From: a virus
Virus record (IMG/VR): IMGVR_UViG_3300000956_000023
Location: 1-29,205 of that record
Direction: 5' to 3' (one strand)
Length of the DNA: 29,205 nucleotides
In this document: positions 13,617 through 25,949 of the stretch, piece by piece
Numbering within the stretch: position 1 is the stretch's first letter
How the letters are laid out: each line of letters opens with the position of its first letter
The notes under the pieces: model-generated
Database searches by the model: none
What the model was told of the DNA's origin: nothing
What the model saw: only the letters and a program-made list of their open reading frames with translations
Translations under genes and position numbers: made by a program

Positions 13617-14455
13617 TGGCGTGTACCGACTGGCGCGGTGTTGAGGAGCGCATCGAGTGGATGCTGGACCATCCGCCGGGTTCGTCTGGCTGGTGCGCTC
13701 GTGAGACCTGGCAGGCTCTGGGCGGCGACAAGAATCCGCCCTGTCCCCCGGCCTGGGGATGCTCTGATGCCAACGAGGTGTACGACAAGATCAAGCAGAG
13801 CGGTCGCTACTGGACGAGCACGCCCATCCCGCGTGGCGCCGTGATCGCATGGAAGTACGGCAGCAATGGGCACGCGGCCCTGTCTTATGGCAATGGCAAG
13901 ATCTGCACCACGGACCCGAACGGGAACCCTGGCGGAGTCGGAATCGAATCGCTGAGCTACCCCGAGAAGTGGGGAGCCAGTGCCAGTGCGAGAATCTGGA
14001 CTGACCAGTACAATGGCGTCAGATTCGATATCGATGAGGAAGGCGACGAAGTGTCGGATGTGCTGGATTACGATTACCTCGAGAAGCCGAGTGGCACATT
14101 CACTGCCACGCGCGATTACAAGACCTTGGACCAGTCGAGCTGGACGCCGCCGCGTGATGGATGGGAAAACACCCTGGTCTATCTGAACATCAAGCCGACC
14201 TTCCGCAGCGGGAAGACCCACGGCGCCATTCGCATTCGCCTCATGCGCGAGAATGGTGACGCTCACGGGTACGACACGATCTCGATCGACGCCGATGACC
14301 TTGACGACGAGGATGGCAACATCCTCAGGCAGTACTTCACCTGGGAGCTCGGCGAAAAGGGAGCAGGGACGAAGATCCAATTGCGCTGTGTCGGCGGCCT
14401 GGAGTCGGCCCTAATCGGAACGCGCTATACATCTAAGGCGGTCGTGGCCGGATAG
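13616..14455 (+). CDS. Endolysin, CHAP-like cysteine peptidase
   Basis: A 279-residue protein with an N-terminal CHAP-like (NlpC/P60 superfamily) domain. Cys27 lies in GWCARETWQAL, and His86 in GAVIAWKYGSNGHAALSYG with Asp100 (ICTTDP) as a plausible third residue. The spacing and the PRGAVIAW strand before the His match that family, which cleaves amide bonds in peptidoglycan. Residues about 150-279 form an acidic, beta-rich domain of unknown type, presumably the cell-wall binding part. There is no signal peptide, so export should depend on a holin. Start ATG is coupled to the 28-residue peptide. Confidence 0.78.
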   Translation: MACTDWRGVEERIEWMLDHPPGSSGWCARETWQALGGDKNPPCPPAWGCSDANEVYDKIKQSGRYWTSTPIPRGAVIAWKYGSNGHAALSYGNGKICTTDPNGNPGGVGIESLSYPEKWGASASARIWTDQYNGVRFDIDEEGDEVSDVLDYDYLEKPSGTFTATRDYKTLDQSSWTPPRDGWENTLVYLNIKPTFRSGKTHGAIRIRLMRENGDAHGYDTISIDADDLDDEDGNILRQYFTWELGEKGAGTKIQLRCVGGLESALIGTRYTSKAVVAG

Positions 14456-14492
14456 CGGTAGGATGGGGCTACCTACAGCCGAGAGGACCACC
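14436..14492 (+). promoter_or_regulatory. Promoter P14459 with start-associated sequence
   Basis: TAGGAT (14459-14464), preceded by CGG, matches the -10 at 25255-25260 base for base (CGGTAGGAT). The -35 region is poor. About 16 nt after the -10, the start-associated sequence GAGAGGACCACC (14481-14492) abuts the ATG of the methyltransferase gene. The promoter begins right after the endolysin stop. Confidence 0.5.
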
Positions 14493-15212
14493 ATGTTATT
14501 CAACACATATCACCTGGCCGATATTAAGGACCAGGCGCATTTCTACCTGCGTGAAGATATGTCGGATCGCAAAGCCGTCGACGAGGTATTCATTCGCAAG
14601 AGTTACGGGCGCTTCCACTTCACGCCCGCGCCAGGGCAGCACTGGCTGGACTTGGGCGCGAACGTTGGCGCCTTCAGCGTCTGGGCGGCCAAGCATGGTG
14701 CCAGGGTCGACGCCTGGGAGCCTGAGCCTGAATGCTTCCGGCAGCTCCAGGTCAACGTTGCCCTGAACGGCCTGGACGAGCTGGTGACCATGCACCAAGC
14801 GGCCGCGTGGCCTGACGACAGCTACGCCGAGTCCGGCCGGACCCTGTCGGTGAATGGCGCCAACGGGAACGTCTGGCGATCGTCGTTGCTGAAGAATTGG
14901 CGTGGCGGCACAGATGTGGTCGTGCCGGTGGAATCCATTGAGGAACACTGGACCCCGGACGTATGCGTGAAAATGGATGTCGAGGGCAGCGAATTGAATC
15001 TGCTCGGTGGGCTCGGCAGCAAGCGCGTGCAGATGCTGGTGTTCGAGTATAGCTTCGATATCCTGCCTGACATGGCGCAATTCAAGGAGCTCATGGAAAT
15101 GCTGCGGGCGACTTATGAGCACGTGCACGGCGGTCCCGGTGCGGCGAGGTTGGCGGAGGAACGCTGGATCGCGCGCGGTCCCGCAAATGGCGTGAATGTG
15201 TTCTGCTGGTGA
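14493..15212 (+). CDS. FkbM-family SAM-dependent methyltransferase
   Basis: A 239-residue class I methyltransferase. WLDLGANVGAFSVWAA (about residues 50-65) is motif I for SAM binding, followed by the acidic VDAWEPEPECF (motif II), HQAAAWPDD, and VCVKMDVEGSE, which is the signature of the FkbM family. FkbM enzymes methylate oxygen on sugars or small molecules. In a phage the acceptor could be a cell-surface glycan or a modified nucleotide; nothing here decides it. ATG 14493 is set by the start-associated sequence ending at 14492, although the frame extends upstream to 14463. Own promoter and position after the lysis genes give it the look of a cargo gene. Confidence 0.82.
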   Translation: MLFNTYHLADIKDQAHFYLREDMSDRKAVDEVFIRKSYGRFHFTPAPGQHWLDLGANVGAFSVWAAKHGARVDAWEPEPECFRQLQVNVALNGLDELVTMHQAAAWPDDSYAESGRTLSVNGANGNVWRSSLLKNWRGGTDVVVPVESIEEHWTPDVCVKMDVEGSELNLLGGLGSKRVQMLVFEYSFDILPDMAQFKELMEMLRATYEHVHGGPGAARLAEERWIARGPANGVNVFCW

Positions 15213-15230
15213 CGACGAGAGGAATGACCA

Positions 15231-15503
15231 ATGACAGTTCATATCGACGACAGGCCTCACCCTGGTCCGCCGCGACGGCGTCTGACCGAGGACGATCGCG
15301 AGCTGGCCGAGGACGTGGCAGCAGCGGCGGAAGAGGTGGAGGCTGCCACTCAGGCGTTGGACGTGGCCTACCGGCACCGTTGGCGCGCGGTGAGCGCTGC
15401 GTTCGATGCCGGCATACACCCATTGGACGTGGTGCGGCTCGCGCGCGTGGAGCGCCGAACCGTGCGCGACTGGCATGCCAAATGGGCCGCTGACCAGGCA
15501 TGA
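15231..15503 (+). CDS. Small helix-turn-helix-like protein
   Basis: A 90-residue protein with a start-associated-like site (GAGAGGAATGACCA, 15217-15230) directly before the ATG. Residues about 20-45 are a long acidic helix (DDRELAEDVAAAAEEVEAAT). Residues 52-87 (WRAVSAAFDAGIHPLDVVRLARVERRTVRDWHAKW) have the spacing of a helix-turn-helix, with RRTVRDW as recognition helix. It may be a transcription regulator acting on the neighbouring promoter P15549, which overlaps the intergenic region just downstream; that is inference. Confidence 0.7.
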   Translation: MTVHIDDRPHPGPPRRRLTEDDRELAEDVAAAAEEVEAATQALDVAYRHRWRAVSAAFDAGIHPLDVVRLARVERRTVRDWHAKWAADQA

Positions 15504-15524
15504 CGCTGCTAAGGCTACCCCGAT

Positions 15525-15554
15525 TTGGCGTCTCGGCGCCTGGTGTGTTAAGAT
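15525..15554 (+). promoter_or_regulatory. Promoter P15549, class A of the phage promoter family
   Basis: TTGGCG (15525-15530), an 18-bp spacer and TAAGAT (15549-15554), with TGT just before the -10 as an extended -10. CCCCGA lies before the -35. The -35 and spacer contain GGCGTCTCGGCGCC (15527-15540), one mismatch from the copies at 24657 and 25876. A leader of about 45 nt with a weak GGGGT/ACCCC hairpin ends in the start-associated sequence GAGAGGACCACCGAG (15590-15604). Confidence 0.8.
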
Positions 15555-15604
15555 CACTCTCAGCGGGGTTCAGCCAGGACCCCCAGGCCGAGAGGACCAC
15601 CGAG

Positions 15605-16228
15605 ATGAGCACCAAGACTCCATTCAGCGTGATGACCCGCAAGTACGGCGAGCTCGTGACCGTCGGCATCAAGAGCCGTCGCGACCTGGCGATCAAGTTC
15701 GCGATCGCTCAGGACGCCGACGAGGTGTGGAGCCCGAAGGGTGAGGTTATCTGGGCGAACCCGGCGCTGGTCATGGCGACGGTTCGCCAGCAGGAGGAGC
15801 AGGCAACGATCGAGGACGAGGTTGCGCAGGAGCAGGAAGTCAGCAAGGATGAGACCATGACTGCAACCCTCACCGAGACCGAGACCGAGACCACCGCCAC
15901 GACCGAGCCGACCGAGCCCAAGGTCAAGAAGGCTCGCACCTACGCGCCGCGCGCCACCGTCCAGAACCCGAACGCGGTTACCGGCCGCTTCGACCTGGCG
16001 ACCTACAGCAAGTCCGATGGGGCCACCACCTACGCGCAGCGCAGCGACGCGGTCCTCCGCGCACTGCTCGGGATCAAGTGGCGCGAGCTCTGGGCGCTCG
16101 GTTTCACCCAGAAGAACAGTTCGAGCGTGTTGATCGACATCGAGGCCGGGCGGATCGATGCGGCGGAGTTCCGCGCCGAGATGCTCGAGAAGCTCGAGAT
16201 TCTCGCCGAGGACGACGAGCAGGAGTGA
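15605..16228 (+). CDS. Unknown acidic protein with Thr/Glu linker
   Basis: A 207-residue protein. The frame is open from 15500 (inside the previous gene's end), but promoter P15549 and the start-associated sequence place the start at ATG 15605. The first 60 residues (TRKYGELVTVGIKSRRDLAIKF, later GEVIWANPALVMATVRQQEE) look folded. A linker of Thr and Glu (TETETETTATTEPTEP) follows, then a second folded part (RSDAVLRALLGIKWRELWALGF, ending EFRAEMLEKLEILAED). The two-domain layout with an acidic linker suggests a DNA-associated or regulatory protein; I do not recognise a family. A strong terminator follows. Confidence 0.78.
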   Translation: MSTKTPFSVMTRKYGELVTVGIKSRRDLAIKFAIAQDADEVWSPKGEVIWANPALVMATVRQQEEQATIEDEVAQEQEVSKDETMTATLTETETETTATTEPTEPKVKKARTYAPRATVQNPNAVTGRFDLATYSKSDGATTYAQRSDAVLRALLGIKWRELWALGFTQKNSSSVLIDIEAGRIDAAEFRAEMLEKLEILAEDDEQE

Positions 16229-16280
16229 GCCTAGCACAACCCTAGGCAAGCCCCCTGGCAGACCGCCAGGGGGCTTTCTC
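16229..16280 (+). terminator. Tandem-hairpin Rho-independent terminator
   Basis: The main hairpin pairs 16250-16259 (GCCCCCTGGC) with 16265-16274 around AGACC and is followed by TTTCTC. Just upstream, GCCTAG (16229-16234) pairs with CTAGGC (16242-16247). It closes the transcription unit of the preceding gene, and promoter P16313 begins about 10 nt later. Confidence 0.85.
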
Positions 16281-16288
16281 GTGCATCC

Positions 16289-16318
16289 CGTGCGTCCCTC
16301 CGCCAGGTCGGGTATGGT
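16289..16318 (+). promoter_or_regulatory. Promoter P16313 of the nucleotide cassette
   Basis: CGTGCG (16289-16294), 18 bp, TATGGT (16313-16318). The spacer region shares TGCGTCCCTCCGCC (16291-16304) with GGCGTTCCTCCGCC at 24343-24356, which marks both as members of one family. The leader is about 60 nt and ends in the start-associated sequence GAGAGGACCACCACC (16370-16384). Confidence 0.65.
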
Positions 16319-16384
16319 CTGCTGCACGGCGCTTTCAGGCGTCGCGACGAATTGCTGACATGCCGACTCGAGAGGACCACCACC

Positions 16385-16804
16385 TTGACCAGACCCTCCT
16401 GGCCAGTACATGCCATGAACCTGGCGGCAGCTGCCGCAGAACGTAGTGAAGACCCCTACTGCCAGGTCGGCGCCACCGTCCTGGATCGGGACGGGGTCGT
16501 TTTGGGCGTTGGCTACAATGGCACGCCCAGTGGCGTGACGGGCGTTGACTGGACCGACCGCGACGCCCGGCGCCCGTACATGATCCACGCCGAAGCGAAC
16601 GCGCTGAGGCACACCACGCCTCCGCTCGCGCACGGTGGCTTGCTGGCGGTCACACACTACCCGTGCGCTGCCTGCTGCACCCTGGCACGGTCCTATGGCA
16701 TCCACACGGTGTTCTGGGCGAGTCCGCCCGACTGGCAGCGCTACCCGAAGCTGGACGAGGCATTCCTGATCCGGCTAGGTGTCGTGTTGTGGCAGGTGCC
16801 GTGA
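16385..16804 (+). CDS. dCMP deaminase
   Basis: A 139-residue zinc deaminase converting dCMP to dUMP. His68-Ala69-Glu70 (MIHAEANAL) and Cys94-x-x-Cys97 (YPCAACC) are the zinc and catalytic motif of the cytidine/deoxycytidylate deaminase superfamily. GVGYNGTPSGV (about 40-50) is the substrate loop typical of dCMP deaminases. The start is a TTG at 16385 placed exactly after the start-associated sequence; ATG 16415 is the alternative. It heads a coupled chain of five nucleotide-metabolism genes. If the downstream enzyme acts on dCMP, this one would compete with it for substrate. Confidence 0.9.
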   Translation: MTRPSWPVHAMNLAAAAAERSEDPYCQVGATVLDRDGVVLGVGYNGTPSGVTGVDWTDRDARRPYMIHAEANALRHTTPPLAHGGLLAVTHYPCAACCTLARSYGIHTVFWASPPDWQRYPKLDEAFLIRLGVVLWQVP

Positions 16805-16986
16805 TGGCCTACGTCCCTCGCCGACTCCGCAAGCGCGCGGCCACCTCTCAGTGGCTGCTGAAGGTGCCACCGCCGTTGACCGCCGAACAGGCCGAACAGA
16901 TCAAACGTCAGTGGCTGGCCAATTTCGGCCGGGGCAGTACTGCCATGGTCGTGCCGAATACGATGCCGGTAATGAGGGTCAAGTGA
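16804..16986 (+). CDS. Small basic protein, unknown
   Basis: A 60-residue protein with ATG 16804 overlapping the deaminase stop (TGATG) and its own stop overlapping the next GTG. It begins MAYVPRRLRKRAATSQWLLKV, then LTAEQAEQIKRQWLANFG (a helix) and a short hydrophobic end. It is very basic and may bind nucleic acid or one of the neighbouring enzymes. No family recognised. Confidence 0.68.
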   Translation: MAYVPRRLRKRAATSQWLLKVPPPLTAEQAEQIKRQWLANFGRGSTAMVVPNTMPVMRVK

Positions 16987-17369
16987 GAATCGAAGAATGG
17001 CCAGCGCCCACCATGGCCACCTGGCTAGCGAGGACGCGCGAGCTGCAGCGCGATTACTTCGGCGGCGACCCCGCCGAATTGCCCCCGGACGAGAAGGTCG
17101 CATTCGTGCGCAACATGGTCCTGGGCCTGATGGTCGAAGCGACCGAGGTGCTCGGTGTGGTCAAGAACTGGAAGTGGTGGCGCACGAGCGCGGTCGCATT
17201 CGACCGGGCGGAATACCTTGAGGAGCTGGTGGATGTGGTCCATTTCGCGGGTGCCTTGGCCGTGATGGCCGGCATTACCGATCAAGAATGGCAGGAGGCA
17301 TATGCACGAAAGACCGAGGTTGTGAAGCTGCGTGCCAGGGCCAAGGCCGAGGCAGGTGCAGCGCAGTGA
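16983..17369 (+). CDS. MazG/dUTPase-like nucleotide pyrophosphohydrolase
   Basis: A 128-residue all-alpha NTP pyrophosphohydrolase. FVRNMVLGLMVEATEVL is followed by KNWKWWR, then YLEELVDVVHFAGALAVMAGI: the E-x2-E ... E-x2-D pattern that binds Mg2+ in dimeric dUTPases, dCTPases and MazG. It removes a dNTP, producing dNMP for the next enzymes. Whether it prefers dUTP or dCTP cannot be read. In a cytosine-modifying phage the expected activity would be dCTP removal, as by T4 gp56. Start GTG 16983 overlaps the previous stop. Confidence 0.82.
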   Translation: MRIEEWPAPTMATWLARTRELQRDYFGGDPAELPPDEKVAFVRNMVLGLMVEATEVLGVVKNWKWWRTSAVAFDRAEYLEELVDVVHFAGALAVMAGITDQEWQEAYARKTEVVKLRARAKAEAGAAQ

Positions 17370-17872
17370 TCGTCATGTTTGAGGGCACGGACGGGGTCGG
17401 CAAGACGCGCACGGCCAAGTGGACTGCGCGGCTTTTACGGGCGCCGTTGGTGCACTACGGGCCTCCGCCCGAGGACCCAGACCCGTTGGAGATCTACGTG
17501 TCGCCAGTGTTCGAGCTCTTAGGTGAGTACGACCATGTGGTGCTGGACAGGAGTCCGTTTGGTGCCACGATCTGGGCGCAGCTCGGGTGCCATCCACCTA
17601 CCATGAACGAGGACTTCCATGGCTCGCTGTGCCGTTTCTTCGCCGTCTGGGACGGCTGGATGAACGTGCTGGTGCGGCCCGAGGCCGCGATCATGGCCGA
17701 GCTCGCCAGGCGCCGGGAGTCATCGCCCGTGACCCTCGAGGATTCGCTACGCGCCCAGGACCTGTACATTGACCTGGTGCTGGATCGCTCGATCCTGTTC
17801 GTGCCCGTGGCGCTCTTCACCAGCAGCTATTACCATCGATTGATCGGAGAGGTGCCACCACAATGGAAATGA
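17366..17872 (+). CDS. Deoxynucleoside monophosphate kinase (thymidylate kinase-like)
   Basis: A 168-residue P-loop kinase with GTDGVGKT at residues 7-14 from GTG 17366, which overlaps the previous stop. HVVLDRSPFGATIWAQL supplies the D-R-S motif of thymidylate-kinase-like NMP kinases. It would phosphorylate the dNMP made by the next gene product to the diphosphate. The 3' end overlaps the next gene by 10 nt, and the start-associated sequence of that gene lies inside this coding region. The length (usually just over 200 for TMK) indicates a compact phage form. Confidence 0.82.
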   Translation: MIVMFEGTDGVGKTRTAKWTARLLRAPLVHYGPPPEDPDPLEIYVSPVFELLGEYDHVVLDRSPFGATIWAQLGCHPPTMNEDFHGSLCRFFAVWDGWMNVLVRPEAAIMAELARRRESSPVTLEDSLRAQDLYIDLVLDRSILFVPVALFTSSYYHRLIGEVPPQWK

Positions 17873-18690
17873 ACCTGCTGACCCCGGCGGAGGCCGTCTA
17901 CTGGGGAACGCGCATTACGATGCAGCACGGGCGCGTGCGAACGTCTCGCGGGATGGAGCATCTGGAGATCCAGAATGCCACCTTCCACATTCGCTTCCCG
18001 CACCTGAATCCCCTGGATGCGCCAGGACGGAATGCGAAGCCTGCCATTGGTGCCCTCGAGGCGGTGCAGCTCGTGGGGCAGCTGTCGCATCCAGAGTCGG
18101 TGACGCGCCGAGTGGCAGCGTTCAAGCCGTACCTGGATGACGGCATCTTCTGGGGAGCCTACGGCACTCGGGTGGTCAGCCAGCTATCGCGCGCTGAGCG
18201 TCTGCTCCGCCAGGACCCTGGCACGCGTCAGGCCGTGGTGAGCATCTACGATGGGCAGCGCGACCTGCTGGCACAGGCCCGAGACGTGCCGTGCACCCTC
18301 ACCCTGCAGTTCCTGTGGGAGGCGCCTATGGTCTTGGGCCTACGGGCGTCCATGCGCAGCAACGACGCGTTTTTGGGCCTTCCCTACGACCTGTTCCAGT
18401 TCACTGCCCTGCAGTGCGCCATGGCTGACGCGCTAGGCGCCCGAGCTGGAGCCTACGTCCACACGGTCGGGTCGCTCCACCTCTACCTACGGGACCGCGA
18501 GGCGGCAGAGCGTATCACGTTCCCTGGTGAGCCGTTGACTCACGAGACTGAGTACGTGCGTAAGTGGAATGGCGACACCATCGGCGTCATAAGCGAGCGT
18601 GCCCGCGATCTGCTGTTCGGATATGCGCTGGCTGAGCCAACAGAGTTCGAGCAATATCTGCAACATTCACTCGAGAGGATCACCACATGA
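17863..18690 (+). CDS. Thymidylate-synthase-fold enzyme, candidate dCMP hydroxymethylase
   Basis: A 275-residue enzyme of the thymidylate synthase fold. Aligned by eye with E. coli ThyA, the nucleophile is Cys144 (DVPCTLTLQF; ThyA Cys146). RSNDAFLGLPYD matches the phosphate and pyrimidine-binding segment, and GSLHLY supplies His206 and Tyr208 (ThyA His207, Tyr209). The residue equal to Asn177 of ThyA, which reads the O4/N3 side of dUMP, is Asp176 here. Asp at this position is the hallmark of dCMP hydroxymethylases (T4 gp42, Asp179) and switches thymidylate synthase toward dCMP in mutants. I infer dCMP as substrate. A variant thymidylate synthase is the alternative. A degenerate start-associated sequence (17846-17862) precedes the ATG. 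Confidence 0.78.
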   Translation: MEMNLLTPAEAVYWGTRITMQHGRVRTSRGMEHLEIQNATFHIRFPHLNPLDAPGRNAKPAIGALEAVQLVGQLSHPESVTRRVAAFKPYLDDGIFWGAYGTRVVSQLSRAERLLRQDPGTRQAVVSIYDGQRDLLAQARDVPCTLTLQFLWEAPMVLGLRASMRSNDAFLGLPYDLFQFTALQCAMADALGARAGAYVHTVGSLHLYLRDREAAERITFPGEPLTHETEYVRKWNGDTIGVISERARDLLFGYALAEPTEFEQYLQHSLERITT

Positions 18691-19034
18691 TGAAAGCATT
18701 CGAGTACCGGCCGCTAATCTGTCGCGGCATCGATGAATGTGGAAACGGGCGGACCATCTCGGTATTCTCGAGAAGGAAGACCCTGAATCCATGCCTCGCC
18801 ATTATCACGTGCCATCGGAAGCACACCGTTCCGGCGTACATTCTTCACCGATATCCGACCATCACACACGTCCTGGCGACAAGCTCGGACGGCCAATCCC
18901 TGCTGCTGGATGCGACTCGGCGCGGTGAGATCCATTTGGGGACGAATATCAACGCTGATGCGCCGAATCGATTCGACGGCAACTACTACTGGCTGCCAGA
19001 GGCATACGACAAGCCGTTTGGGGTGAAGCTATGA
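18687..19034 (+). CDS. Unknown 115-aa protein
   Basis: Starts at ATG 18687 directly after a start-associated sequence (GAGAGGATCACCAC, 18673-18686) that lies inside the end of the preceding gene; a second in-frame ATG follows at 18690. The protein has mixed strands (CLAIITCHRKHTVPAYILH, ITHVLATSSDGQSLLLDA) and ends GNYYWLPEAYDKPFGVKL. No enzymatic motif is visible. It sits between the nucleotide genes and the nuclease and may belong to either. Confidence 0.75.
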   Translation: MMKAFEYRPLICRGIDECGNGRTISVFSRRKTLNPCLAIITCHRKHTVPAYILHRYPTITHVLATSSDGQSLLLDATRRGEIHLGTNINADAPNRFDGNYYWLPEAYDKPFGVKL

Positions 19035-20019: not shown

Positions 20020-20339
20020 GCACGCGTGCACTGAAGGCCCATCGCGAAGCGGCCCTGGCGGTGCTGTCCGCCATCGGCCCGAATGAGAGCCTCGAAGAGC
20101 TGGCCGCACGTGTGGCGAGCGCGGTTGTCGAGGCAGAGGACAAGACCACCTGGATTGTGATCGTGGATGCCGGGCCGAGGAATGTGCCCATCGTCTACGG
20201 CCCATATTCATCAGCAAACGTGGCGCGGCGCTCGATTGAATCCGGGCTGATGCTGAATGGACCCAGGGGACGGATGTTAGTGGCCATGAGGCCGGTACCC
20301 AGGAAGGGTGCCACCACCAATAGGAAGGTAGAGAAATGA
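20016..20339 (+). CDS. Unknown 107-aa protein
   Basis: ATG 20016 overlaps the previous stop and the end overlaps the next start. Residues 1-45 are helical (KAHREAALAVLSAIGP, then EELAARVASAVVEAED). The second half has WIVIVDAG and VPIVYGPYSSANVARRSIESG, a small alpha/beta unit. No family recognised. The coupled position between nuclease and ssDNA-binding candidate suggests a recombination or replication accessory role. Confidence 0.72.
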   Translation: MSTRALKAHREAALAVLSAIGPNESLEELAARVASAVVEAEDKTTWIVIVDAGPRNVPIVYGPYSSANVARRSIESGLMLNGPRGRMLVAMRPVPRKGATTNRKVEK

Positions 20340-20836: not shown

Positions 20837-20852
20837 GAATCCACACAGGAGC

Positions 20853-20901
20853 GGCCCTGGCAGGGGAGAGGACCACCACAGTCTTTGACCCTGCCAGGGC
20901 C
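20853..20901 (+). terminator. 13-bp hairpin with a start-associated sequence in its loop
   Basis: 20853-20865 (GGCCCTGGCAGGG) pairs perfectly with 20889-20901. The 23-nt loop contains GAGAGGACCACCACA (20866-20880), the start-associated sequence found before many genes, followed by GTCTTTGA with no start codon at the expected place. No good T-run follows, so a pure terminator role is doubtful. The remaining part of the 148-nt gap up to 20984 has a repeated AGAGCCGT (near 20945 and 20973) and no convincing gene. Confidence 0.8.
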
Positions 20902-20984
20902 AGCTGTTTGCCATTCTGCCACAGGCTCGCTTGTTACGCCAGGCTAGAGCCGTCATGCCTTCCCCTCGAGAATAGAGCCGTGCG

Positions 20985-23201
20985 GTGATAGATGATGCCC
21001 AGAATGTAATGCCTCTCCATCCGATGACATTAGCGCTGAGCTGGCTGCAGCGTGGCGTCCCGGCCTTTCCTGTTGAGATATTCATGCAAGATGGCAGGCT
21101 GCAGAAGCGTCCAGCTACGGCACATAGCCACCATGATGCTTCGCTGGACCCGGACGTGGTGCGGGACATGTTCGTGCAGGCCCAGATGCGCCACGGCGGT
21201 GTGCTGGCCGTGGGCTTGCTTCCGGGCGCGGGCAATCTGATCGTGCTGGACCCGGATGTCAAGACGGACGACCGGGACGGGGTCAGGTTCGCGGACTCGC
21301 TAGGCATCCCGTTTGGCTGGCTGGTGTTCACACCTAGCGGAGGCCAGCACAGGTATTTCTGCAAGCCCGATCCCCTGGCGCGCTATTCGAACAAGGTACC
21401 TCCTGCCTGGAACGGCTTCATCGACATCCGCGTGGATCACGGTTGGGTGGTCGCGCCCGGCACGGTGACGCCGTGGGGCAGCTGGCGCGCCGAGGCTCCA
21501 TGGCCCGACCAGGGACCGCCCAGAGCGCCACAGGCCGTCCTGGAGGCCCTGACCTATGGTGCGGGCCAGTCTGGTGCCACAGGGACGCCTGGCGGGCGTC
21601 TGACGCCGGACAGAGAGGCCCTGCTGCCCGAGCACACGCTGGCAGTGCTCCACTGGCTGGAGACCAATCACGGCGCCCACAACCCATTGCTCATGATGCG
21701 CGCGGGCGACGTGAACTACGTGGCGGTGACGCGTCCTGGCAAGCGTGTCGGGATCTCAGCAACGATCGGGTTCGCGGACACGGGCGCGCTGCACCTGTAT
21801 TCCAGCTCGTGGGTCATTGAGGGCGTGGAACAGGCCGTCACGTGCTACCCGTTGGGCCGCGACACGGACACGCTCGGTGCCAGGGCAGCGGTCGCCGCTG
21901 CCACGCCCGTGCCCGCTGGTCCATTCTTTGTCCGTGGCTCGTTCCAGGTGCAGACCATGGCAGCGGCTGTCATGAGCGACATCCCCTTGGCACTGGACCG
22001 CACCGACGGCGGGCTATGGTATTATCGGGACGGGGTCTGGCGCCCGATGCTGGCAGGCGATGACGTGGTGTTGGCTGGAGTCACTGGCAGGCTCGGTGAG
22101 CGATTCCGCACGAGCCATTACAATAACGTCCGGGAATACATTCGCGGTCAGGCACCCACCATCCGCCCTAGCGACCCGAATCCACGCTACGTGAATACTC
22201 CGGGCGGGATGCTGGAGTGGCGCACGGGGGAGCTCTGCGGGCATGCACCAGAGTTCCAGTCAGTGAATCAGATCACAGCTCGTTGGGAGCCTGGTGCGCG
22301 CTGTCCTGCCTTCGACGCCTGGATCGCTGAGGTGCTGCCGGGCGACCTGGTGGGCCAGTGGCTGGACGAGCTGCTCGGTTATTTGGTGCTGTCCGGGAAT
22401 CCGTTCCAGAAAGCCATCCTCCTGCTCGGACGCGGGCGTAACGGTAAGGGCACATTCATCCGCGTGGTGCAGGCGCTGCTAGGCGACGAGAACTATTCAA
22501 ACGTGACGCTGCAGGGCCTGGTCGGCAACCGCTTCGGCGCGGCGGACATGTACGGGAAGTTGGCGAATATCTGTGGCGATCTGGATTCGTCGCGGCTCGA
22601 GTCCACCGCCATGTTCAAGATGGTAACGGGCGGCGACACCATTTCGGCAGAGCGGAAGTTCGGCCATGCATTCTCGTTCACGCCTTACGCTGTGCCGTTC
22701 TTCAGCGCGAATGCAGTGTTCGGTACGCCCGACACTTCGGATGGCTACATGAGCCGTTGGGTGATCGTGCCGTTCCCGAACAGCTTCGAGGGTGGCGCCG
22801 ACCGCGCGCTGACTGAGCGGCTCACGACCGAGGCCGAGCTAGCCGGCATTTTGGCCAGGGCAATTCGCGGACTGCGCACCCTGATGCTGCGCAATGACTT
22901 CCAGATGGCAGATTCAGTACGCGCAGCTCGCGAGCAATTCGAGCGCGAGTCCGACCCTATCCGCGCGTTCATCGCGGACTGCACAGGCCCGGGCGGGTAC
23001 GCCACCCGGCACGACTTGTGGACGACATATACGGTGTGGGCAGCGGAAAGTGGCCACGCCGCATTGGCTCGTACAAAGTTCTACGCTCGTCTCGAAGAAA
23101 CGGGCCTGGCGCCCACGGCGCTGCAGGGCGTTCGGGCATTCAAAGGCCGCCACATGACCCAGGAAGCGCATTATGGGTCGTTGGTGCCAAAGGTGCAGTA
23201 G
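20985..23201 (+). CDS. PrimPol-SF3 helicase (D5/P4-like replication protein)
   Basis: A 738-residue two-part replication initiator. The N-terminal primase-polymerase domain (about 1-190) shows LIVLDPDVK with Asp89 and Asp91, and SGGQHRYF with His122, the metal and phosphate-binding motifs of the archaeo-eukaryotic PrimPol family. A D5-type linker follows. The C-terminal SF3 helicase has Walker A GRGRNGKGT at 482-490, then NICGDLDSS, and PFFSANAVFGTPDTSDGYMSRW with sensor and arginine-finger regions. No separate DNA polymerase is seen in the window. Start: GTG 20985; ATG 21009 is possible, and neither has a strong ribosome site. The stop lies inside the large inverted repeat. Confidence 0.9.
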   Translation: MIDDAQNVMPLHPMTLALSWLQRGVPAFPVEIFMQDGRLQKRPATAHSHHDASLDPDVVRDMFVQAQMRHGGVLAVGLLPGAGNLIVLDPDVKTDDRDGVRFADSLGIPFGWLVFTPSGGQHRYFCKPDPLARYSNKVPPAWNGFIDIRVDHGWVVAPGTVTPWGSWRAEAPWPDQGPPRAPQAVLEALTYGAGQSGATGTPGGRLTPDREALLPEHTLAVLHWLETNHGAHNPLLMMRAGDVNYVAVTRPGKRVGISATIGFADTGALHLYSSSWVIEGVEQAVTCYPLGRDTDTLGARAAVAAATPVPAGPFFVRGSFQVQTMAAAVMSDIPLALDRTDGGLWYYRDGVWRPMLAGDDVVLAGVTGRLGERFRTSHYNNVREYIRGQAPTIRPSDPNPRYVNTPGGMLEWRTGELCGHAPEFQSVNQITARWEPGARCPAFDAWIAEVLPGDLVGQWLDELLGYLVLSGNPFQKAILLLGRGRNGKGTFIRVVQALLGDENYSNVTLQGLVGNRFGAADMYGKLANICGDLDSSRLESTAMFKMVTGGDTISAERKFGHAFSFTPYAVPFFSANAVFGTPDTSDGYMSRWVIVPFPNSFEGGADRALTERLTTEAELAGILARAIRGLRTLMLRNDFQMADSVRAAREQFERESDPIRAFIADCTGPGGYATRHDLWTTYTVWAAESGHAALARTKFYARLEETGLAPTALQGVRAFKGRHMTQEAHYGSLVPKVQ

Positions 23202-23328
23202 GTGCAGCTAGGTGCAGCACCTGGCAATCTAAGCTACCTCCAGGTGGAACGTGAACAACGCCCTAACCCTGACGGGTTTGTAAAAAGAATGGCTCCAGGT
23301 GCTGCACCTAGCTGCACCTACTGCACCT
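23191..23328. repeat. Perfect 34-bp inverted repeat of iterons, origin candidate
   Basis: Left arm 23191-23224 and right arm 23295-23328 are perfect reverse complements over 34 bp, separated by 70 nt. Each arm contains three iterons of AGGTGCAG (spaced about 10 bp) ending in ACCTGG, so iterons face each other. The inner 70 nt include CCTCCAGGTGG, forming a further CACCTGG/CCAGGTG pair, and an A/T-rich stretch TTTGTAAAAAGAAT. The left arm holds the last codons and stop of the primase-helicase gene. Location and iterons fit the origin bound by this initiator. The other reading is a very stable terminator. Confidence 0.9.
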
Positions 23329-23458
23329 GGCGTCCCTACGCCGGGCACGGCAGAGGACAATGGTGCTGGCCGTCCAGGCGGAGACCTCCGACCCCCCGTG
23401 CGTGTGGTCCGTCTGGGCGGCCATTTGCGACTCGCCCGGGATGCGACTCGCCGTGCAC

Positions 23459-23488
23459 ATGGCGCCGGGACGCCGCGTGTGTTATCAT
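23459..23488 (+). promoter_or_regulatory. Leaderless promoter P23483, class B
   Basis: ATGGCG (23459-23464), 18 bp and TATCAT (23483-23488) preceded by TGT. The spacer region carries GGCGCCGGGACGCC (23461-23474), the exact reverse complement of the element at 24657 and 25876. Two GACTCGCC boxes lie upstream (23429-23436 and 23445-23452). The -10 ends 6 nt before ATG 23495, so transcription should start at or next to the A of ATG. The 167 nt before it (from 23329) hold no gene; a small GGCGT/ACGCC palindrome is at 23329-23342. Confidence 0.78.
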
Positions 23489-23494
23489 GAAGCT

Positions 23495-23737
23495 ATGACC
23501 ACCACACAGCGCTTCATCGGCCGTTGCAAGACCTGCAAGACCGTCCAGGCCGTTGAGGCTGAGGACCCTAACCTGTGGCGCTACGGGCGCACCTGCTGTG
23601 GCCGGACCCCGCAGCTCCTGGCGATCGAAGGCACCAAGTCCGAGAAGAAGTGCGGTGCGCTCTGCCGGAACGCCATGGGTCCGCGCTGCGACTGCTCGTG
23701 CGAGGGCGAGAATCACGGGCGGTCGCATTTCGGGTGA
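23495..23737 (+). CDS. Cys-rich zinc-binding protein, leaderless mRNA
   Basis: An 80-residue protein. ATG 23495 is fixed by the promoter. It contains CKTCK near the start, CCG in the middle and a C-terminal block KKCGALCRNAMGPRCDCSCEG followed by NHGRSH. The last block, with a C...C..A.G..C.C.C.G..HG pattern, recurs in actinophage and actinobacterial small proteins. Nine or ten Cys in 80 residues indicate two or three structural zinc sites. Function is unknown. No Shine-Dalgarno is present, consistent with leaderless translation, which actinobacteria carry out well. Confidence 0.8.
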   Translation: MTTTQRFIGRCKTCKTVQAVEAEDPNLWRYGRTCCGRTPQLLAIEGTKSEKKCGALCRNAMGPRCDCSCEGENHGRSHFG

Positions 23738-23745
23738 CCCCCGAT

Positions 23746-23775
23746 GCGGCGCGCGGACGCCGCATGTGTTATACT
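23746..23775 (+). promoter_or_regulatory. Promoter P23770, class A
   Basis: GCGGCG (23746-23751), 18 bp, TGT and TATACT (23770-23775), preceded by CCCCGA. A perfect 8-bp inverted repeat, ATGCGGCG (23744-23751) and CGCCGCAT (23758-23765), covers the -35 and spacer. The leader is about 30 nt and ends in the start-associated sequence GAGAGGACACCAC followed by ATC (23797-23812). Confidence 0.78.
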
Positions 23776-23812
23776 ACGAACTGTCAGCATTCAACCGAGA
23801 GGACACCACATC

Positions 23813-24256
23813 ATGACCACCATCCGCTTCGAGACCACCACTTGTGACCGCTGCGGCGGTACCGGGTACATGCCATACGCGGCCTACGGTGGCGTGTGCT
23901 TCAAGTGCAACAAGGCAGGCAAGGTGCTCACCCGCAAGGGCCTGGCAGCTCGCAAGGCGTTCTACGCGGCGCGTGTGGCGGCCTGCCAGTCGGTGCCGGT
24001 CGGCGAGCTCCAGGTGGGGCAGAAGATCAGCCAGGATGGCGAGACATGGCGCACGGTTGTGGCGCCGGTCGACCTGGAGGAGACCTCGGGTTACGAGACC
24101 GATGCCAACGGTGAGCGGTTCCCGTTCGTCCGGGTGGAGACCCAGAAGACCAGCATGCTGGTCCGGGCGGACGCCACGGTGCTGGTGTGGTCGCCCGAGG
24201 CCCAGAAAGCGGCCTTCGCCAGGGTCGCCAAGATGTCGGGCGCGATCATCAGCTAG
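23813..24256 (+). CDS. Zinc-finger protein with CxxCxGxG-like motif
   Basis: A 147-residue protein. The N terminus has CDRCGGTGY and, after about 14 residues, CFKCNKAGKVL: two CxxC-x-G-x-G modules as in the DnaJ-type zinc finger. A Lys/Arg-rich helix follows (LTRKGLAARKAFYAARV), then a beta-rich domain (GELQVGQKISQDGETWRTV, SMLVRADATVLVW). Such proteins are frequent in actinophage early regions and are of unknown role; nucleic-acid binding is likely. Start ATG 23813 is defined by the adjacent start-associated sequence, and a terminator follows. Confidence 0.8.
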   Translation: MTTIRFETTTCDRCGGTGYMPYAAYGGVCFKCNKAGKVLTRKGLAARKAFYAARVAACQSVPVGELQVGQKISQDGETWRTVVAPVDLEETSGYETDANGERFPFVRVETQKTSMLVRADATVLVWSPEAQKAAFARVAKMSGAIIS

Positions 24257-24274
24257 GCGGGCAGGGCAGAGCTG

Positions 24275-24304
24275 GAGGGGCATCCGAGAGGGTGCCCCTC
24301 TTTT
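24275..24304 (+). terminator. Rho-independent terminator
   Basis: GAGGGGCA (24275-24282) pairs with TGCCCCTC (24293-24300) and TTTT follows directly (24301-24304). It separates the zinc-finger gene from promoter P24365. Confidence 0.85.
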
Positions 24305-24340
24305 CGCGACTCGCCCGGGAATCAAGACTCGCCGTTGAAC

Positions 24341-24370
24341 GTGGCGTTCCTCCGCCGCATCGGGTATGAT
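24341..24370 (+). promoter_or_regulatory. Promoter P24365, class B
   Basis: GTGGCG (24341-24346), 18 bp, TATGAT (24365-24370). Two GACTCGCC boxes lie upstream (24308-24315 and 24326-24333), the first within a 15-bp stretch identical to 23427-23441. The spacer has GGCGTTCCTCCGCC (24343-24356). The leader, about 40 nt, contains GGTC/GACC and ends in GAGAGGACCACCACA (24402-24416). Confidence 0.78.
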
Positions 24371-24416
24371 GAGGTCAAGACGTTAAGACCGACTCCCACC
24401 CGAGAGGACCACCACA

Positions 24417-24611
24417 ATGAACCGCATCTTCACCGCCACCGCTCTGCTCCTGGTCTCGTTCCTGGCTGTGTTCGCTGGCCAGCACGTCGCGGTTGTCGAC
24501 GCGCACGGGCATCACGTTGATTCGCGCCACGTCGCGGTCGACGCCGAGCTGAGCGGCCGCATCTGCCGCCGTGGCGTCGCGGCCCTGGCGGTGGACGAGC
24601 ACCGCGCCTGA
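24417..24611 (+). CDS. Small secreted or membrane protein
   Basis: A 64-residue protein with a clear N-terminal export signal: MNR, a hydrophobic core (IFTATALLLVSFLAVFAG) and a small-residue turn. The mature part is His- and Asp-rich (VDAHGHHVDSRHVAVDAE), ending in a possible disulfide-free RICRRG region. If exported, the His cluster may bind metal ions. A role in superinfection exclusion or envelope binding is possible, but unsupported beyond topology. Confidence 0.75.
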   Translation: MNRIFTATALLLVSFLAVFAGQHVAVVDAHGHHVDSRHVAVDAELSGRICRRGVAALAVDEHRA

Positions 24612-24624
24612 GCAACCCACCTAG

Positions 24625-24654
24625 ATCGGGGGCATCCACCAGGGTGCCCCCGAT
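24625..24654 (+). terminator. Terminator-like hairpin abutting a promoter
   Basis: ATCGGGGGCA (24625-24634) pairs perfectly over 10 bp with TGCCCCCGAT (24645-24654) around a 10-nt loop. No T-run follows: the next base is the first of the -35 at 24655. It resembles the hairpin at 24275 in its CATCC/GGTGC loop borders and likely stops upstream transcription. Confidence 0.75.
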
Positions 24655-24684
24655 GTGGCGTCCCGGCGCCCGGTGTGTTACAAT
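24655..24684 (+). promoter_or_regulatory. Leaderless promoter P24679, class A
   Basis: GTGGCG (24655-24660), 18 bp, TGT and TACAAT (24679-24684), preceded by CCCCGA. The spacer element is GGCGTCCCGGCGCC (24657-24670), identical to that at 25876-25889. The -10 ends 6 nt before ATG 24691, the same distance as at 23488/23495, so the mRNA should be leaderless. Confidence 0.82.
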
Positions 24685-24690
24685 GGGATC

Positions 24691-24882
24691 ATGAACAAGA
24701 AGAGCACCGCCACCAAGATGTACACCTACTGCAGCGGCACCTTCGAGGTGCTCGGCCACACGGACGACCTGGCCGTGGCCGAGCGCGAGGCCAAGGCCGC
24801 TGGTGGCTACGTGAAGGACCGCGTTGGCCGCGTTGTCTACCGTACCGTGGCGTTCACGCGCAACGGCGTTGGGCGCAACTGA
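24691..24882 (+). CDS. 63-aa basic protein, leaderless mRNA
   Basis: A 63-residue protein beginning NKKSTATKMYTYCSG, then FEVLGHTDDLAVAEREAKAAGGYVKDRVGRVVYRTV. The central helix (DDLAVAEREAKAAGG) flanked by strands resembles small alpha/beta phage proteins of unknown function. No ribosome site is present. The start is fixed by the promoter that ends 6 nt upstream. It shares a transcript with the gene at 24918, which has its own start-associated sequence. Confidence 0.75.
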   Translation: MNKKSTATKMYTYCSGTFEVLGHTDDLAVAEREAKAAGGYVKDRVGRVVYRTVAFTRNGVGRN

Positions 24883-24917
24883 TGAGCACCCACCCACCCA
24901 CACGAGAGGACACTACG

Positions 24918-25205
24918 ATGAACACCACCACCACCCTCCAGCTCCTGACCGCACTGCGCCACGAGCGCCTCACTGCCGCGCGCACTGGCCACAACATGGG
25001 GATCGGGCAGCTCGGCCTGGTCGAGTTCGACTACTACACCAAGGCCCTGGCGATCCTGGCGCGGCTGGACCGCGACGCCACGTTCACCTTCACGGATGAC
25101 GAGCTTGCGTCATTCCCGTCCTACGCGGACGAGGACGACGAGATGCTGGACTGGCCAGACGAGGCCGTGGCGGGGTTCTTTGCCATGGACCTAGGCCTGG
25201 TCTAG
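24918..25205 (+). CDS. Acidic 95-aa protein, unknown
   Basis: ATG 24918 directly follows GAGAGGACACTACG (24904-24917). The sequence has a helical first half (LQLLTALRHERLTAARTG, FDYYTKALAILARL) and a very acidic second half (YADEDDEMLDWPDEAVAG), ending FFAMDLGLV. The strong negative charge could make it a DNA mimic, an idea only. It follows the leaderless gene without a promoter of its own. Confidence 0.75.
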   Translation: MNTTTTLQLLTALRHERLTAARTGHNMGIGQLGLVEFDYYTKALAILARLDRDATFTFTDDELASFPSYADEDDEMLDWPDEAVAGFFAMDLGLV

Positions 25206-25218
25206 GCCCGACTCGCCG

Positions 25219-25260
25219 GGCGTCCCAGATGCGGCCCTGGGACGCCTGGTACGGTAGGAT
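25219..25260 (+). promoter_or_regulatory. Promoter P25255 with 10-bp inverted repeat
   Basis: GCGGCC (25231-25236), 18 bp, TAGGAT (25255-25260). A perfect 10-bp inverted repeat, GGCGTCCCAG (25219-25228) and CTGGGACGCC (25237-25246), flanks the -35, which is exactly in the 8-nt loop region; the arms contain the GGCGTCCC / GGGACGCC half-sites found in other promoters. One GACTCGCC box is at 25210-25217. It could serve as upstream terminator, operator, or both. The leader ends in GAGAGGACACCAC (25283-25295). Confidence 0.72.
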
Positions 25261-25295
25261 AGGGCTGCACGCCACCCACGACGAGAGGACACCAC

Positions 25296-25520
25296 ATGTT
25301 GCTCAAGAAGGCTCATGAGCTCGCGATCGGCGATCGCATCCGTTACCTTGGCGAACCCTACCTGGTGGTCGGGCTAGCGCGCCAGCAAGCTGTGCGGGGA
25401 TCGGAGCACCGCTGGCACGGCGCCTTGGTGCACCTGACGCTCAGGGACGAGCATGGGTGCAGGGTGCTGTTGCCTGTGGCGCCCGACCTCGGGTTCTCGC
25501 TGGTGCCCCAGGAGGACTGA
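25296..25520 (+). CDS. Small beta-rich protein, unknown
   Basis: A 74-residue protein. LAIGDRIRYLGEPYLVVGL, ALVHLTLRDEHGCRVLL and FSLVPQED give a five-strand SH3-like or small-barrel pattern, as in many phage early proteins. The start directly follows the start-associated sequence. The stop overlaps the next ATG (TGATG), and a second ribosome site (GGAGGA) lies at the 3' end for that gene. Confidence 0.75.
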   Translation: MLLKKAHELAIGDRIRYLGEPYLVVGLARQQAVRGSEHRWHGALVHLTLRDEHGCRVLLPVAPDLGFSLVPQED

Positions 25521-25708
25521 TGGACGCGTTGTTCACTCAGCTCCAGGGCATCCGCCGTGCGGTGCAGGAGGAACGACAAGAACGTCCTGGATGTTCCGCT
25601 CAGCGGCCCGATGGGCCGCACGTGTGGGTGGTCGCCAGGAACCGCGCGGTGCAGCAGTGCCGTGTGTGCCGAAGGCTTCGCATGCGACCTGGCTACGAAG
25701 CAGAATGA
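25520..25708 (+). CDS. 62-aa protein with CxxC
   Basis: Coupled to the preceding gene by TGATG, with AGGAGGA 4 nt upstream. It starts DALFTQLQGIRRAVQEERQE, an amphipathic helix, and carries WVVARNRAVQQCRVCRRLRMR, where CRVC and basic residues may bind nucleic acid. Its TGA overlaps the start-associated sequence (25707-25721) of the next gene. Unknown function. Confidence 0.68.
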   Translation: MDALFTQLQGIRRAVQEERQERPGCSAQRPDGPHVWVVARNRAVQQCRVCRRLRMRPGYEAE

Positions 25709-25721
25709 GAGGATCACCACC

Positions 25722-25844
25722 ATGTTCGACAAGTTGACAGGCCTGGTGCTGGACGTGCTGGGCGCGTTGGGATTGCTGTTCGCTGCGATGATGATCGGGC
25801 GCGCGCTGTTCGTGTGGGCGCTGGAGGTGGTAGCAGCATCATGA
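25722..25844 (+). CDS. 40-aa membrane microprotein
   Basis: ATG 25722 follows GAGAGGATCACCACC. The product MFDKLTGLVLDVLGALGLLF continues into AAMMIGRALFVWALEVV, a helix long enough for one membrane span with an acidic residue at position 11. Unknown function; a phage membrane effector or exclusion protein is possible. The next ATG (25841) is in an ATGA overlap but opens a frame through a promoter and is not annotated. Confidence 0.65.
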   Translation: MFDKLTGLVLDVLGALGLLFAAMMIGRALFVWALEVVAAS

Positions 25845-25873
25845 GTCGAGACCGGGCGCCAGGGCACCCCGAT

Positions 25874-25928
25874 TTGGCGTCCCGGCGCCCGGTCTGTCAT
25901 ACTGATCTTACGGCTCCCGCCGGGAGCC
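25874..25928 (+). promoter_or_regulatory. Promoter P25898, class A, with leader hairpin
   Basis: TTGGCG (25874-25879), 18 bp, TGT and CATACT (25898-25903), preceded by CCCCGA. The element GGCGTCCCGGCGCC is at 25876-25889. Near the predicted transcript start a 7-bp hairpin forms between GGCTCCC (25912-25918) and GGGAGCC (25922-25928) with a 3-nt loop. The start-associated sequence GAGAGGACCACCACC (25935-25949) then abuts ATG 25950. A 5'-terminal hairpin would protect the mRNA. Confidence 0.82.
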
Positions 25929-25949
25929 ACGACCGAGAGGACCACCACC

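What the first reader, a model, noticed from the sequence alone, without database searches (positions are those of the whole stretch)
14436..25949. Dispersed promoter plus start-associated sequence system
Promoters at 15525, 16289, 23459, 23746, 24341, 24655, 25231 and 25874 all have TTGGCG-like -35, exactly 18 bp spacing and a TANNNT-type -10. At least twelve genes have GAGAGGAYCACCAC, or a close variant, directly before the start (14481, 15217, 15590, 16370, 17846, 18673, 23797, 24402, 24904, 25283, 25707, 25935). The conservation goes well beyond a Shine-Dalgarno (AGAGGA), since the downstream CACCAC part is also kept. In concept it recalls the start-associated sequences of cluster K mycobacteriophages, but the sequence is different. 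The CACCAC part may bind a phage protein or the ribosome.
Basis: partly seen in the sequence, partly recalled or inferred. Interest (0 to 1): 0.86.

Follow-up and report, generated by a model that had tools for sequence, protein, structure and literature searches.

The report
Phage promoter and start-motif gene switchboard
An uncultured virus of (probably) actinobacteria repeats one promoter eight times and one ribosome-binding motif a dozen times across its non-structural genes, a control layout known from only a few phage groups and still unexplained.

Summary
A promoter repeat occurs eight times on one strand (seven strong, one weak). GAGAGG stands at the ribosome-binding site of 12 genes; the downstream CACCA/CCACC half is kept in 10. 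At start-like sites with GAGAGGA it follows in 9 of 12 here, 1 of 38 in other actinophage loci. A relative (L026) with the same gene block uses GGAACCACCAC and also has a start-less copy in a hairpin loop in that gap. The layout is that of SAS/ESAS in cluster K and EF phages with other letters and operator: a new variant of a known kind. Most likely: dyad-controlled sigma-A-type promoters plus an extended Shine-Dalgarno site. Against: a consensus promoter/terminator scan lists none of these sites, and expression data are lacking. What reads CCACCAC is open; the hairpin copies make it testable.

The parts
15525..15554 (+). promoter 1, TTGGCG-18-TAAGAT, dyad 15527-15540; upstream of gene 15605 with start motif
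16289..16318 (+). promoter 2 (weak member), CGTGCG-18-TATGGT; gene with TTG start 16385
   Evidence: 18 other positions score as high when it is left out
23459..23488 (+). promoter 3, ATGGCG-18-TATCAT, dyad 23461-23474; no start motif; ATG at 23495, 6 nt after the -10 box (leaderless by prediction)
23746..23775 (+). promoter 4, GCGGCG-18-TATACT, dyad 23748-23761
24341..24370 (+). promoter 5, GTGGCG-18-TATGAT, dyad 24343-24356
24655..24684 (+). promoter 6, GTGGCG-18-TACAAT, dyad 24657-24670; no start motif; ATG at 24691, 6 nt after the -10 box (leaderless by prediction)
25231..25260 (+). promoter 7, GCGGCC-18-TAGGAT (imperfect dyad)
25874..25903 (+). promoter 8, TTGGCG-18-CATACT, dyad 25876-25889; leader hairpin 25912-25928
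14481..14492 (+). start motif GAGAGGACCACC, ATG 14493 (FkbM methyltransferase); no family promoter
15217..15230 (+). start motif, SD half only (GAGAGGAATGACCA), ATG 15231 (small predicted HTH protein)
15590..15604 (+). start motif GAGAGGACCACCGAG, ATG 15605
16370..16384 (+). start motif GAGAGGACCACCACC, TTG 16385 (dCMP deaminase)
17847..17862 (+). start motif GAGAGGTGCCACCACA, ATG 17863 (ThyX); lies inside the preceding ORF
18673..18686 (+). start motif GAGAGGATCACCAC, ATG 18687; lies inside the end of ThyX
20853..20901 (+). hairpin of 13 perfect pairs (20853-20865 / 20889-20901); its 23-nt loop begins with an exact start-motif copy (20866-20879); no start codon 4-11 nt after GAGAGGA (a TTG at 12 nt opens a frame of about 20 codons)
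23797..23812 (+). start motif GAGAGGACACCACATC, ATG 23813
24402..24416 (+). start motif GAGAGGACCACCACA, ATG 24417
24904..24917 (+). start motif variant GAGAGGACACTACG, ATG 24918; no own promoter
25283..25295 (+). start motif GAGAGGACACCAC, ATG 25296
25707..25721 (+). start motif GAGAGGATCACCACC, ATG 25722; overlaps the preceding stop codon; no own promoter
25935..25949 (+). start motif GAGAGGACCACCACC, ATG 25950 (DUF2786 protein)
16248..16276 (+). hairpin (12 pairs) followed by TCTC, just upstream of promoter 2; terminator-like, but not listed by the consensus scan
24275..24300 (+). hairpin (8 pairs) followed by TTTT, upstream of promoter 5; terminator-like, not listed
24625..24654 (+). hairpin (10 pairs) abutting promoter 6, no T tail; terminator-like, not listed

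Best explanation
This is a two-layer regulon for the non-structural genes of an uncultured actinophage. Layer 1 (promoter family shown; regulation inferred): a repeated sigma-A-type promoter with a GGCG-N6-CGCC dyad across the -35 box and spacer. Host RNA polymerase would start there and a phage DNA-binding dimer on the dyad would set timing; three promoters have a terminator-like hairpin just upstream, and two would make leaderless mRNAs. Layer 2 (sequence shown; action inferred): an extended ribosome-binding site. GAGAGGA pairs with the tail of 16S rRNA. CCACCAC has almost no pairing there and acts as a second, separately recognised element that raises or gates initiation of this gene set. 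The copy shown in a hairpin loop between the SSB-like gene and primase would be a structured binding or decoy site for whatever reads the motif. The last step is the weakest.
For: A matrix of the eight promoters separates them from the rest of both strands and from shuffles. The dyad arms GGCG/CGCC stay while the six bases between them diverge; spacing 6 gives 10 exact dyads in the window, 6 of them in the 8 promoters, against 1-7 for the other spacings from 0 to 13. CACCA/CCACC follows GAGAGGA at 9 of 12 start-like sites here against 1 of 38 in other actinophage loci (p 8e-7), and follows AGGA at 9 of 22 inside 14.4-26 kb against 0 of 23 outside. CACCAC is kept although its distance to GAGAGGA and to the start codon varies by a base or more. 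Pairing with a recalled 16S tail: GAGAGGA -8.8 kcal/mol, CCACCAC -2.0. A relative with 34-61% identity at ten shared non-structural genes keeps CCACCAC with another SD (GGAACCACCAC), before starts on one strand plus one start-less loop copy in the same gap. The loop site is rare: 15 of 2524 GAGGA cores in other loci sit in a hairpin of 10 or more pairs, 0 in a perfect one of 13 or more.
Against: No expression data; no motif-binding protein identified. The consensus scan lists none of the eight promoters (2 promoter-like sites found, 2.9 expected) and none of the three terminator-like hairpins (4 found, 7.1 expected). Only one relative carries the motif, and in the parts held its promoters are not of this family (best matrix score 3.9). 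Two of 12 copies lack the CACCAC half. GAGAGGA alone is not confined to the region: 7159, before the tape-measure-like gene, has it without CACCAC. The loop copies lie at different distances from the SSB stop (+16 and +159). In the fold of the window's loop copy the SD half pairs inside the stem and only CACCACA stays open, while the relative's loop folds differently. The dyad could be a by-product of one ancestral promoter being copied.
Confidence: 0.55

Rival explanations
1. Just a strong, phage-typical ribosome-binding site: GAGAGGA pairs with 16S rRNA and CCACCAC is merely a favourable unstructured, G-free spacer; no dedicated factor.
For: GAGAGGA pairs along its whole length with the (recalled) 16S tail. 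Single copies of CGAGAGGAYCACCACMATG occur in 9 other viral contigs; two of these, L007 and L012, show distant portal similarity to the window.
Against: Any A/C string would serve as spacer, yet other actinophage start-like sites have CACCA/CCACC in only 1 of 38 (GAGAGGA), 25 of 936 (GAGGA) and 88 of 2404 (AGGA) cases. The relative keeps the same seven letters with a different SD. The start-less hairpin copies cannot be ordinary ribosome-binding sites.
Confidence: 0.3
2. Copying, not selection: one promoter-leader-start cassette was duplicated by recombination and the repeats are its traces.
For: Promoters 1, 4 and 8 share CCCCGAT with promoter 6 and are 71-87% identical to it over 38 nt.
Against: Six of 12 motifs have no promoter, two lie inside the preceding gene, two of 8 promoters have no motif; the leaders between promoter and motif differ; the relative places the motif on partly different genes.
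Confidence: 0.08
3. The motif is a DNA site for a repressor, like the stoperators of L5-type phages.
For: Dispersed, oriented, non-palindromic short sites also describe stoperators (recalled).
Against: Twelve of 13 copies sit at a ribosome-binding site, with GAGAGG complementary to 16S rRNA; orientation always follows the gene (GAGAGGA: 13 on +, 0 on -).
Confidence: 0.07

Closest known systems
SAS/ESAS of cluster K mycobacteriophages (PMC3203893, passages; ESAS as promoter in PMC11373665, passages)
   Same: 13-nt motif a few nt before starts, one orientation, non-structural genes, conserved beyond anti-SD pairing; upstream SigA-like promoter with 17-18 bp spacing and an inverted repeat; a leaderless gene is predicted there too; one Anaya copy is noted as not start-linked. 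My de novo finder recovers their motif in Anaya and Pixie. The window's SSB-like protein matches cluster K phages such as Angelica and Anaya at 41%.
   Different: Motif GAGAGGACCACCAC instead of GGGATAGGAGCCC; dyad GGCG-N6-CGCC inside the promoter instead of a 15-17 bp imperfect repeat; two promoters without motif and apparently leaderless; start-less copy in a hairpin loop.
SAS/ESAS of Microbacterium cluster EF, AnnaSerena (PMC7302621, passages)
   Same: 10 copies of GGGAAAGGACCCC at ribosome-binding sites with a conserved upstream element; GA-N-AGGA core followed by a C-rich end, as here.
   Different: Different letters outside GANAGGA; upstream element centred on GTAGAG, not a GGCG/CGCC dyad.
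Intergenic inverted repeats of cluster EG and O phages (PMC7302621, passages; the cluster O paper PMC4351075 seen as a listing only)
   Same: Repeated inverted repeats upstream of starts (14-22 bp in EG).
   Different: Here the dyad lies across the -35 box and spacer of a promoter and the start motif is separate.

Membership tests
Cluster K SAS | consensus GGGATAGGAGCCC | tested here: not met
   best start-linked 13-mer in the window is ACCCGAGAGGACC (8 starts, 8 on the strand, 0 on the other); Anaya and Pixie give GGGATAGGAGCCC (15 and 18 starts)
Cluster K SAS | copies just upstream of start codons, one orientation, confined to non-structural genes | tested here: met
   12 of 13 motif copies in 14.4-26 kb precede a start (two more GAGAGG strings there, 21613 and 24286, are not copies); GAGAGGA 13 on + / 0 on -; CACCA/CCACC at 0 of 23 AGGA start-like sites outside the region
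Cluster K SAS | conservation beyond what can pair with 16S rRNA | tested here: met
Cluster K ESAS | SigA-like promoter with inverted repeat directly upstream of the SAS | tested here: inconclusive
   6 of 12 motifs have a family promoter, with a different and shorter dyad; consensus scan negative
Cluster K phage | nucleotide similarity to cluster K genomes | tested here: not met
   no megablast match of 14000-26000 in 50,697 phage records; no more distant DNA search ran (searches failed)
Cluster EF SAS | consensus GGGAAAGGACCCC with ESAS centred on GTAGAG | tested here: not met
   motif letters differ; GTAGAG was not searched for
Ordinary Shine-Dalgarno | conservation limited to anti-SD complement and spacing | tested here: not met
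   9 of 12 against 1 of 38
Sigma-A promoter | transcription start about 7 nt after the -10 box | not testable with these tools
   needs 5'-end mapping
L5-type stoperators | repressor-bound 13-bp asymmetric DNA sites | not tested
   known to me from recall and a mention in PMC3203893; no binding data

The most novel reading that the evidence does not exclude
CCACCAC is the binding site of a phage-encoded RNA-binding translational regulator that acts on the whole start-motif gene set, in the manner of a multi-target phage translational regulator, and the hairpin-loop copy between the SSB-like and primase genes, seen in both phages, is its high-affinity sensor or decoy, so that replication genes and regulator level are tied together.
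Probability: 0.2. Interest if true: 0.85.

Novelty: new variant of a known kind. Interest (0 to 1): 0.5.

Why it matters
Start-associated sequences were described in 2011 and a 2024 paper still calls their role unknown (passages). Another lineage with different letters but the same layout, a relative that changes the Shine-Dalgarno half and keeps the CCACCAC half, and start-less copies displayed in hairpin loops separate the ribosome-pairing part from the extra part. That gives a simple RNA bait and clean mutants for asking what reads these motifs.

Tried and rejected
A ninth promoter at 14436 (AAGGCG-18-TAGGAT) looked plausible by eye and failed the left-out matrix test. Resemblance of GGAUCACC in the motif to the 16S 3' end (recalled) was dropped, because the variable base is C or A in most copies. 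The loop copy as an ordinary start site was dropped: no start codon 4-11 nt after the SD half in either phage (for the window; my reading for L026). A plain transcription terminator does not explain the motif in the loop; but a hairpin after the SSB-like gene is common in this family (28 of 42 loci against 47 of 808 other genes), generally without the motif in its loop, so the window's hairpin itself may be that general element. A first de novo motif search with unrestricted starts gave a coding repeat as best hit in the window and was replaced by one that requires a Shine-Dalgarno core; there too some loci reach high counts through coding repeats (L020 reverse strand, 11 at starts of 42 in all). 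Relatives: primase, promoter-pattern and exonuclease searches of viral contigs gave none, none and only the L026 record; capsid searches gave structural fragments of 4-15 kb in which I saw single look-alikes at most; genome contigs gave none for the capsid and seven distant SSB-like loci. The exact 15-mer CGAGAGGACCACCAC occurs once each in 27 viral contigs, 7 of them before a start; none listed two copies. The small HTH protein (15231) and its positional counterpart in L026 do not align by BLASTP; the structure match of the former to HTH domains is weak (best E 0.46). Rfam: no match.
Full report
What the window is. The window is the whole of a 29,205-base virus record, 63.8% G+C, with no megablast match of 14000-26000 among 50,697 phage records. 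Its left part holds terminase, portal and capsid genes, a tape-measure-like gene and a lysin-like gene (my reading of the translations), and a tRNA-Thr. Its right part holds an FkbM methyltransferase, dCMP deaminase, a dUTPase, ThyX, an exonuclease, an SSB-like gene and a primase. The name SSB comes from the annotation of a Rhodococcus phage relative. The terminase finds only nine Gordonia phage records and the SSB-like protein 277 records, all from phages of actinobacteria, 256 of them named Mycobacterium, so the host is probably an actinobacterium.

The promoters. All eight can be written with an 18-bp spacer. Four (1, 4, 6, 8) are one 38-nt repeat that includes CCCCGAT upstream, 71-87% identical to its reference copy. 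A matrix built from the eight scores them 25-47; the next + strand position scores 13.7, the best - strand position 8.2, 15 shuffles at most 13.0, and the best position in the other loci fetched 19.1. Left out one at a time, seven of nine candidates outrank all non-member positions; 16289 is weak, and my own ninth candidate, 14436, failed. A consensus sigma-70 scan lists none of the eight (2 sites found, 2.9 expected), so the family rests on its repetition and position, not on likeness to TTGACA/TATAAT.

What the promoters hide. Six of eight contain an exact GGCG-N6-CGCC dyad across the -35 box and spacer, and two an imperfect one. Exact dyads of this spacing number 10 in the window, against 1 to 7 for the other spacings from 0 to 13. 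The arms are conserved while the bases between them change. I infer an operator for a dimeric phage regulator. Hairpins lie just upstream of promoters 16289, 24341 and 24655, one followed by TTTT and one by TCTC; the terminator scan does not list them (4 sites found, 7.1 expected). If they work, several genes are single units of terminator, promoter, leader and start.

Leaderless units. Promoters 23459 and 24655 have no start motif. Their -10 boxes end six bases before ATG (23495 and 24691), which predicts mRNAs that begin at or next to the start codon (read). Leaderless genes are ordinary in actinobacteria (recalled).

The start motif. GAGAGG stands at all 12 listed places. Ten of 12 keep the CACCA/CCACC half; 15217 and 24904 do not. 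The CACCAC unit is kept although its distance to GAGAGGA and to the start varies. Six of 12 copies follow a family promoter (15590, 16370, 23797, 24402, 25283, 25935). The other six do not, and two of these lie inside the preceding reading frame (17847, 18673), so the motif is not part of the promoter and most likely acts in the mRNA. GAGAGGA itself also stands before the tape-measure-like gene (7159), without CACCAC.

Is the second half more than chance? I compared start-like sites (SD core, then a start codon 4-11 nt on that opens at least 35 codons; not curated genes). After GAGAGGA, CACCA/CCACC follows at 9 of 12 in the window and 1 of 38 in the other loci (Fisher p 8e-7); with GAGGA, 9 of 22 against 25 of 936; with AGGA, 9 of 45 against 88 of 2404. 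Inside 14.4-26 kb it is 9 of 22 AGGA sites, outside 0 of 23 (p 6e-4). These baselines use both strands of the other loci, leave out loci fetched by the motif itself and the relative, but include groups of near-identical cluster K phages, so the loci are not independent. An earlier count of ATG genes with strict CCACC in the spacer gave 46 of 1643 in other loci (those fetched by the motif included), 5 of 31 in the window, and 5 of 16 and 5 of 8 in two overlapping parts of the relative. A de novo finder without prior motif gives GGGATAGGAGCCC in Anaya and Pixie (the positive control) and ACCCGAGAGGACC, 8 of 8 occurrences at starts, in the window. Most of the other SSB-bearing loci outside cluster K show nothing comparable there.

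A relative with its own version. Of the 80 loci listed by an SSB alignment search, L026 shares the gene block in order: 60% identity at dCMP deaminase, 61% at dUTPase, 34% at a P-loop kinase-like gene (my reading; no Pfam hit), 56% at ThyX, 58% at the exonuclease, 53% at the gene before SSB, 46% at the SSB-like protein and 42% at the primase N-terminal part. In its 32-kb record GAGGANCCACCA (one mismatch allowed) occurs 8 times, all on one strand; the reversed control pattern gives 1. Seven of the eight precede an ATG and one does not; I read two more variants before starts. Its form is GGAACCACCAC: the Shine-Dalgarno half differs, the CCACCAC half is the same. ThyX carries the motif in both phages, the kinase-like gene only in L026, dCMP deaminase only in the window. 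The first gene of the set (15605 here, 5144 in L026; 33% identity) has a promoter-like TTGCGT-18-TATGAT plus motif in L026 too (my reading), but the parts of L026's record that I hold have no member of the window's promoter family (best score 3.9).

The copy that is not at a start. In the window the exact copy at 20866 has no start codon at 4-11 nt (a TTG at 12 nt opens about 20 codons) and lies in the 23-nt loop of a perfect 13-bp hairpin (20853-20901) between the SSB-like gene and primase. In L026 the start-less copy lies in the 21-nt loop of a hairpin with 10 pairs and one mismatch, in the same gap; in both the motif begins at the first loop base, and the stem sequences are unrelated. Of 2524 GAGGA cores in other loci, 15 sit in a hairpin of 10 or more pairs and none in a perfect one of 13 or more; in the window 1 of 62 does and in L026 1 of 50, and both are this copy. 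Cautions: the distances from the SSB stop differ (16 and 159 nt); only two genomes are known; hairpins directly after this SSB-like gene are common (28 of 42 loci, picked from the 80 by dropping many near-identical cluster K ones and counting the window, against 47 of 808 other genes), generally without the motif in the loop. Cluster K is not free of start-less copies: the authors note one in Anaya, and I find one of 16 Anaya copies, with two mismatches, without a start, about 90 nt before its SSB-like gene; it was not among the hairpin-loop sites, which looked only at AGGA and GGAG cores.

How it most likely works. Shown: the repeats, their orientation, positions, dyads and the relative. Inferred: host RNA polymerase uses the promoters; a phage regulator, perhaps the small HTH protein 15231 (predicted long helix plus two short helices, single-sequence model, mean pLDDT 85, weak HTH matches), acts on the dyad; GAGAGGA pairs with 16S rRNA; CCACCAC is read by the ribosome or a phage protein; the hairpin shows the same signal as a binding or decoy site.

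What is known. Cluster K phages have SAS and ESAS; the authors argue that SAS are more than a ribosome-binding site and leave their function open (PMC3203893, passages). In Adephagia the ESAS are SigA-like promoters with 17-18 bp spacing and an inverted repeat, and one gene is predicted to be leaderless (PMC11373665, passages). Cluster EF phages have GGGAAAGGACCCC with an upstream element (PMC7302621, passages). A 2025 survey of 188 cluster K genomes still calls for experiments (PMC12699233, passages). The searches (open-licence papers; by words, not by the motif's letters) showed me no report of this motif or of a start motif in a hairpin loop. Hence: same kind of system, different letters and operator, plus the hairpin copies: a new variant of a known kind.

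Noticed in passing
window 20853-20901; L027-L105 downstream of the SSB-like gene: The SSB-like gene of many actinophages is followed within 40 nt of its stop by a strong hairpin (28 of 42 loci against 47 of 808 other genes), with varied stems and mostly C-rich loops. Possibly a terminator or mRNA 3' protector; one paper search by words showed no report of it.
   Followed up: partly
window 23191-23224 and 23295-23328: Perfect 34-bp inverted repeat made of AGGTGCAG-like units, 70 nt apart, overlapping the primase stop codon; a candidate replication origin or large hairpin.
   Followed up: no
window 23329-23342: A further GGCG-N6-CGCC dyad directly after that inverted repeat, without a matching -10 box (matrix score 13.7).
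   Followed up: no
L115 (reverse strand), G001:28000-32341: The relative's end region has genes separated by strong GC-rich hairpins and two kinds of repeated leaders before the motif, each nearly the same in two genes (my reading).
   Followed up: partly
window 27146-27729: Three consecutive small genes share repeated stretches (CTGCGCGAGCAGGTGCAGGC-like and CTGCTGGACGGGGGCGA-like), as from tandem gene duplication.
   Followed up: no
L019 16750-16762 (Anaya): A start-less SAS-like copy with two mismatches about 90 nt before the SSB-like gene; whether it has a role like the window's loop copy is open.
   Followed up: no
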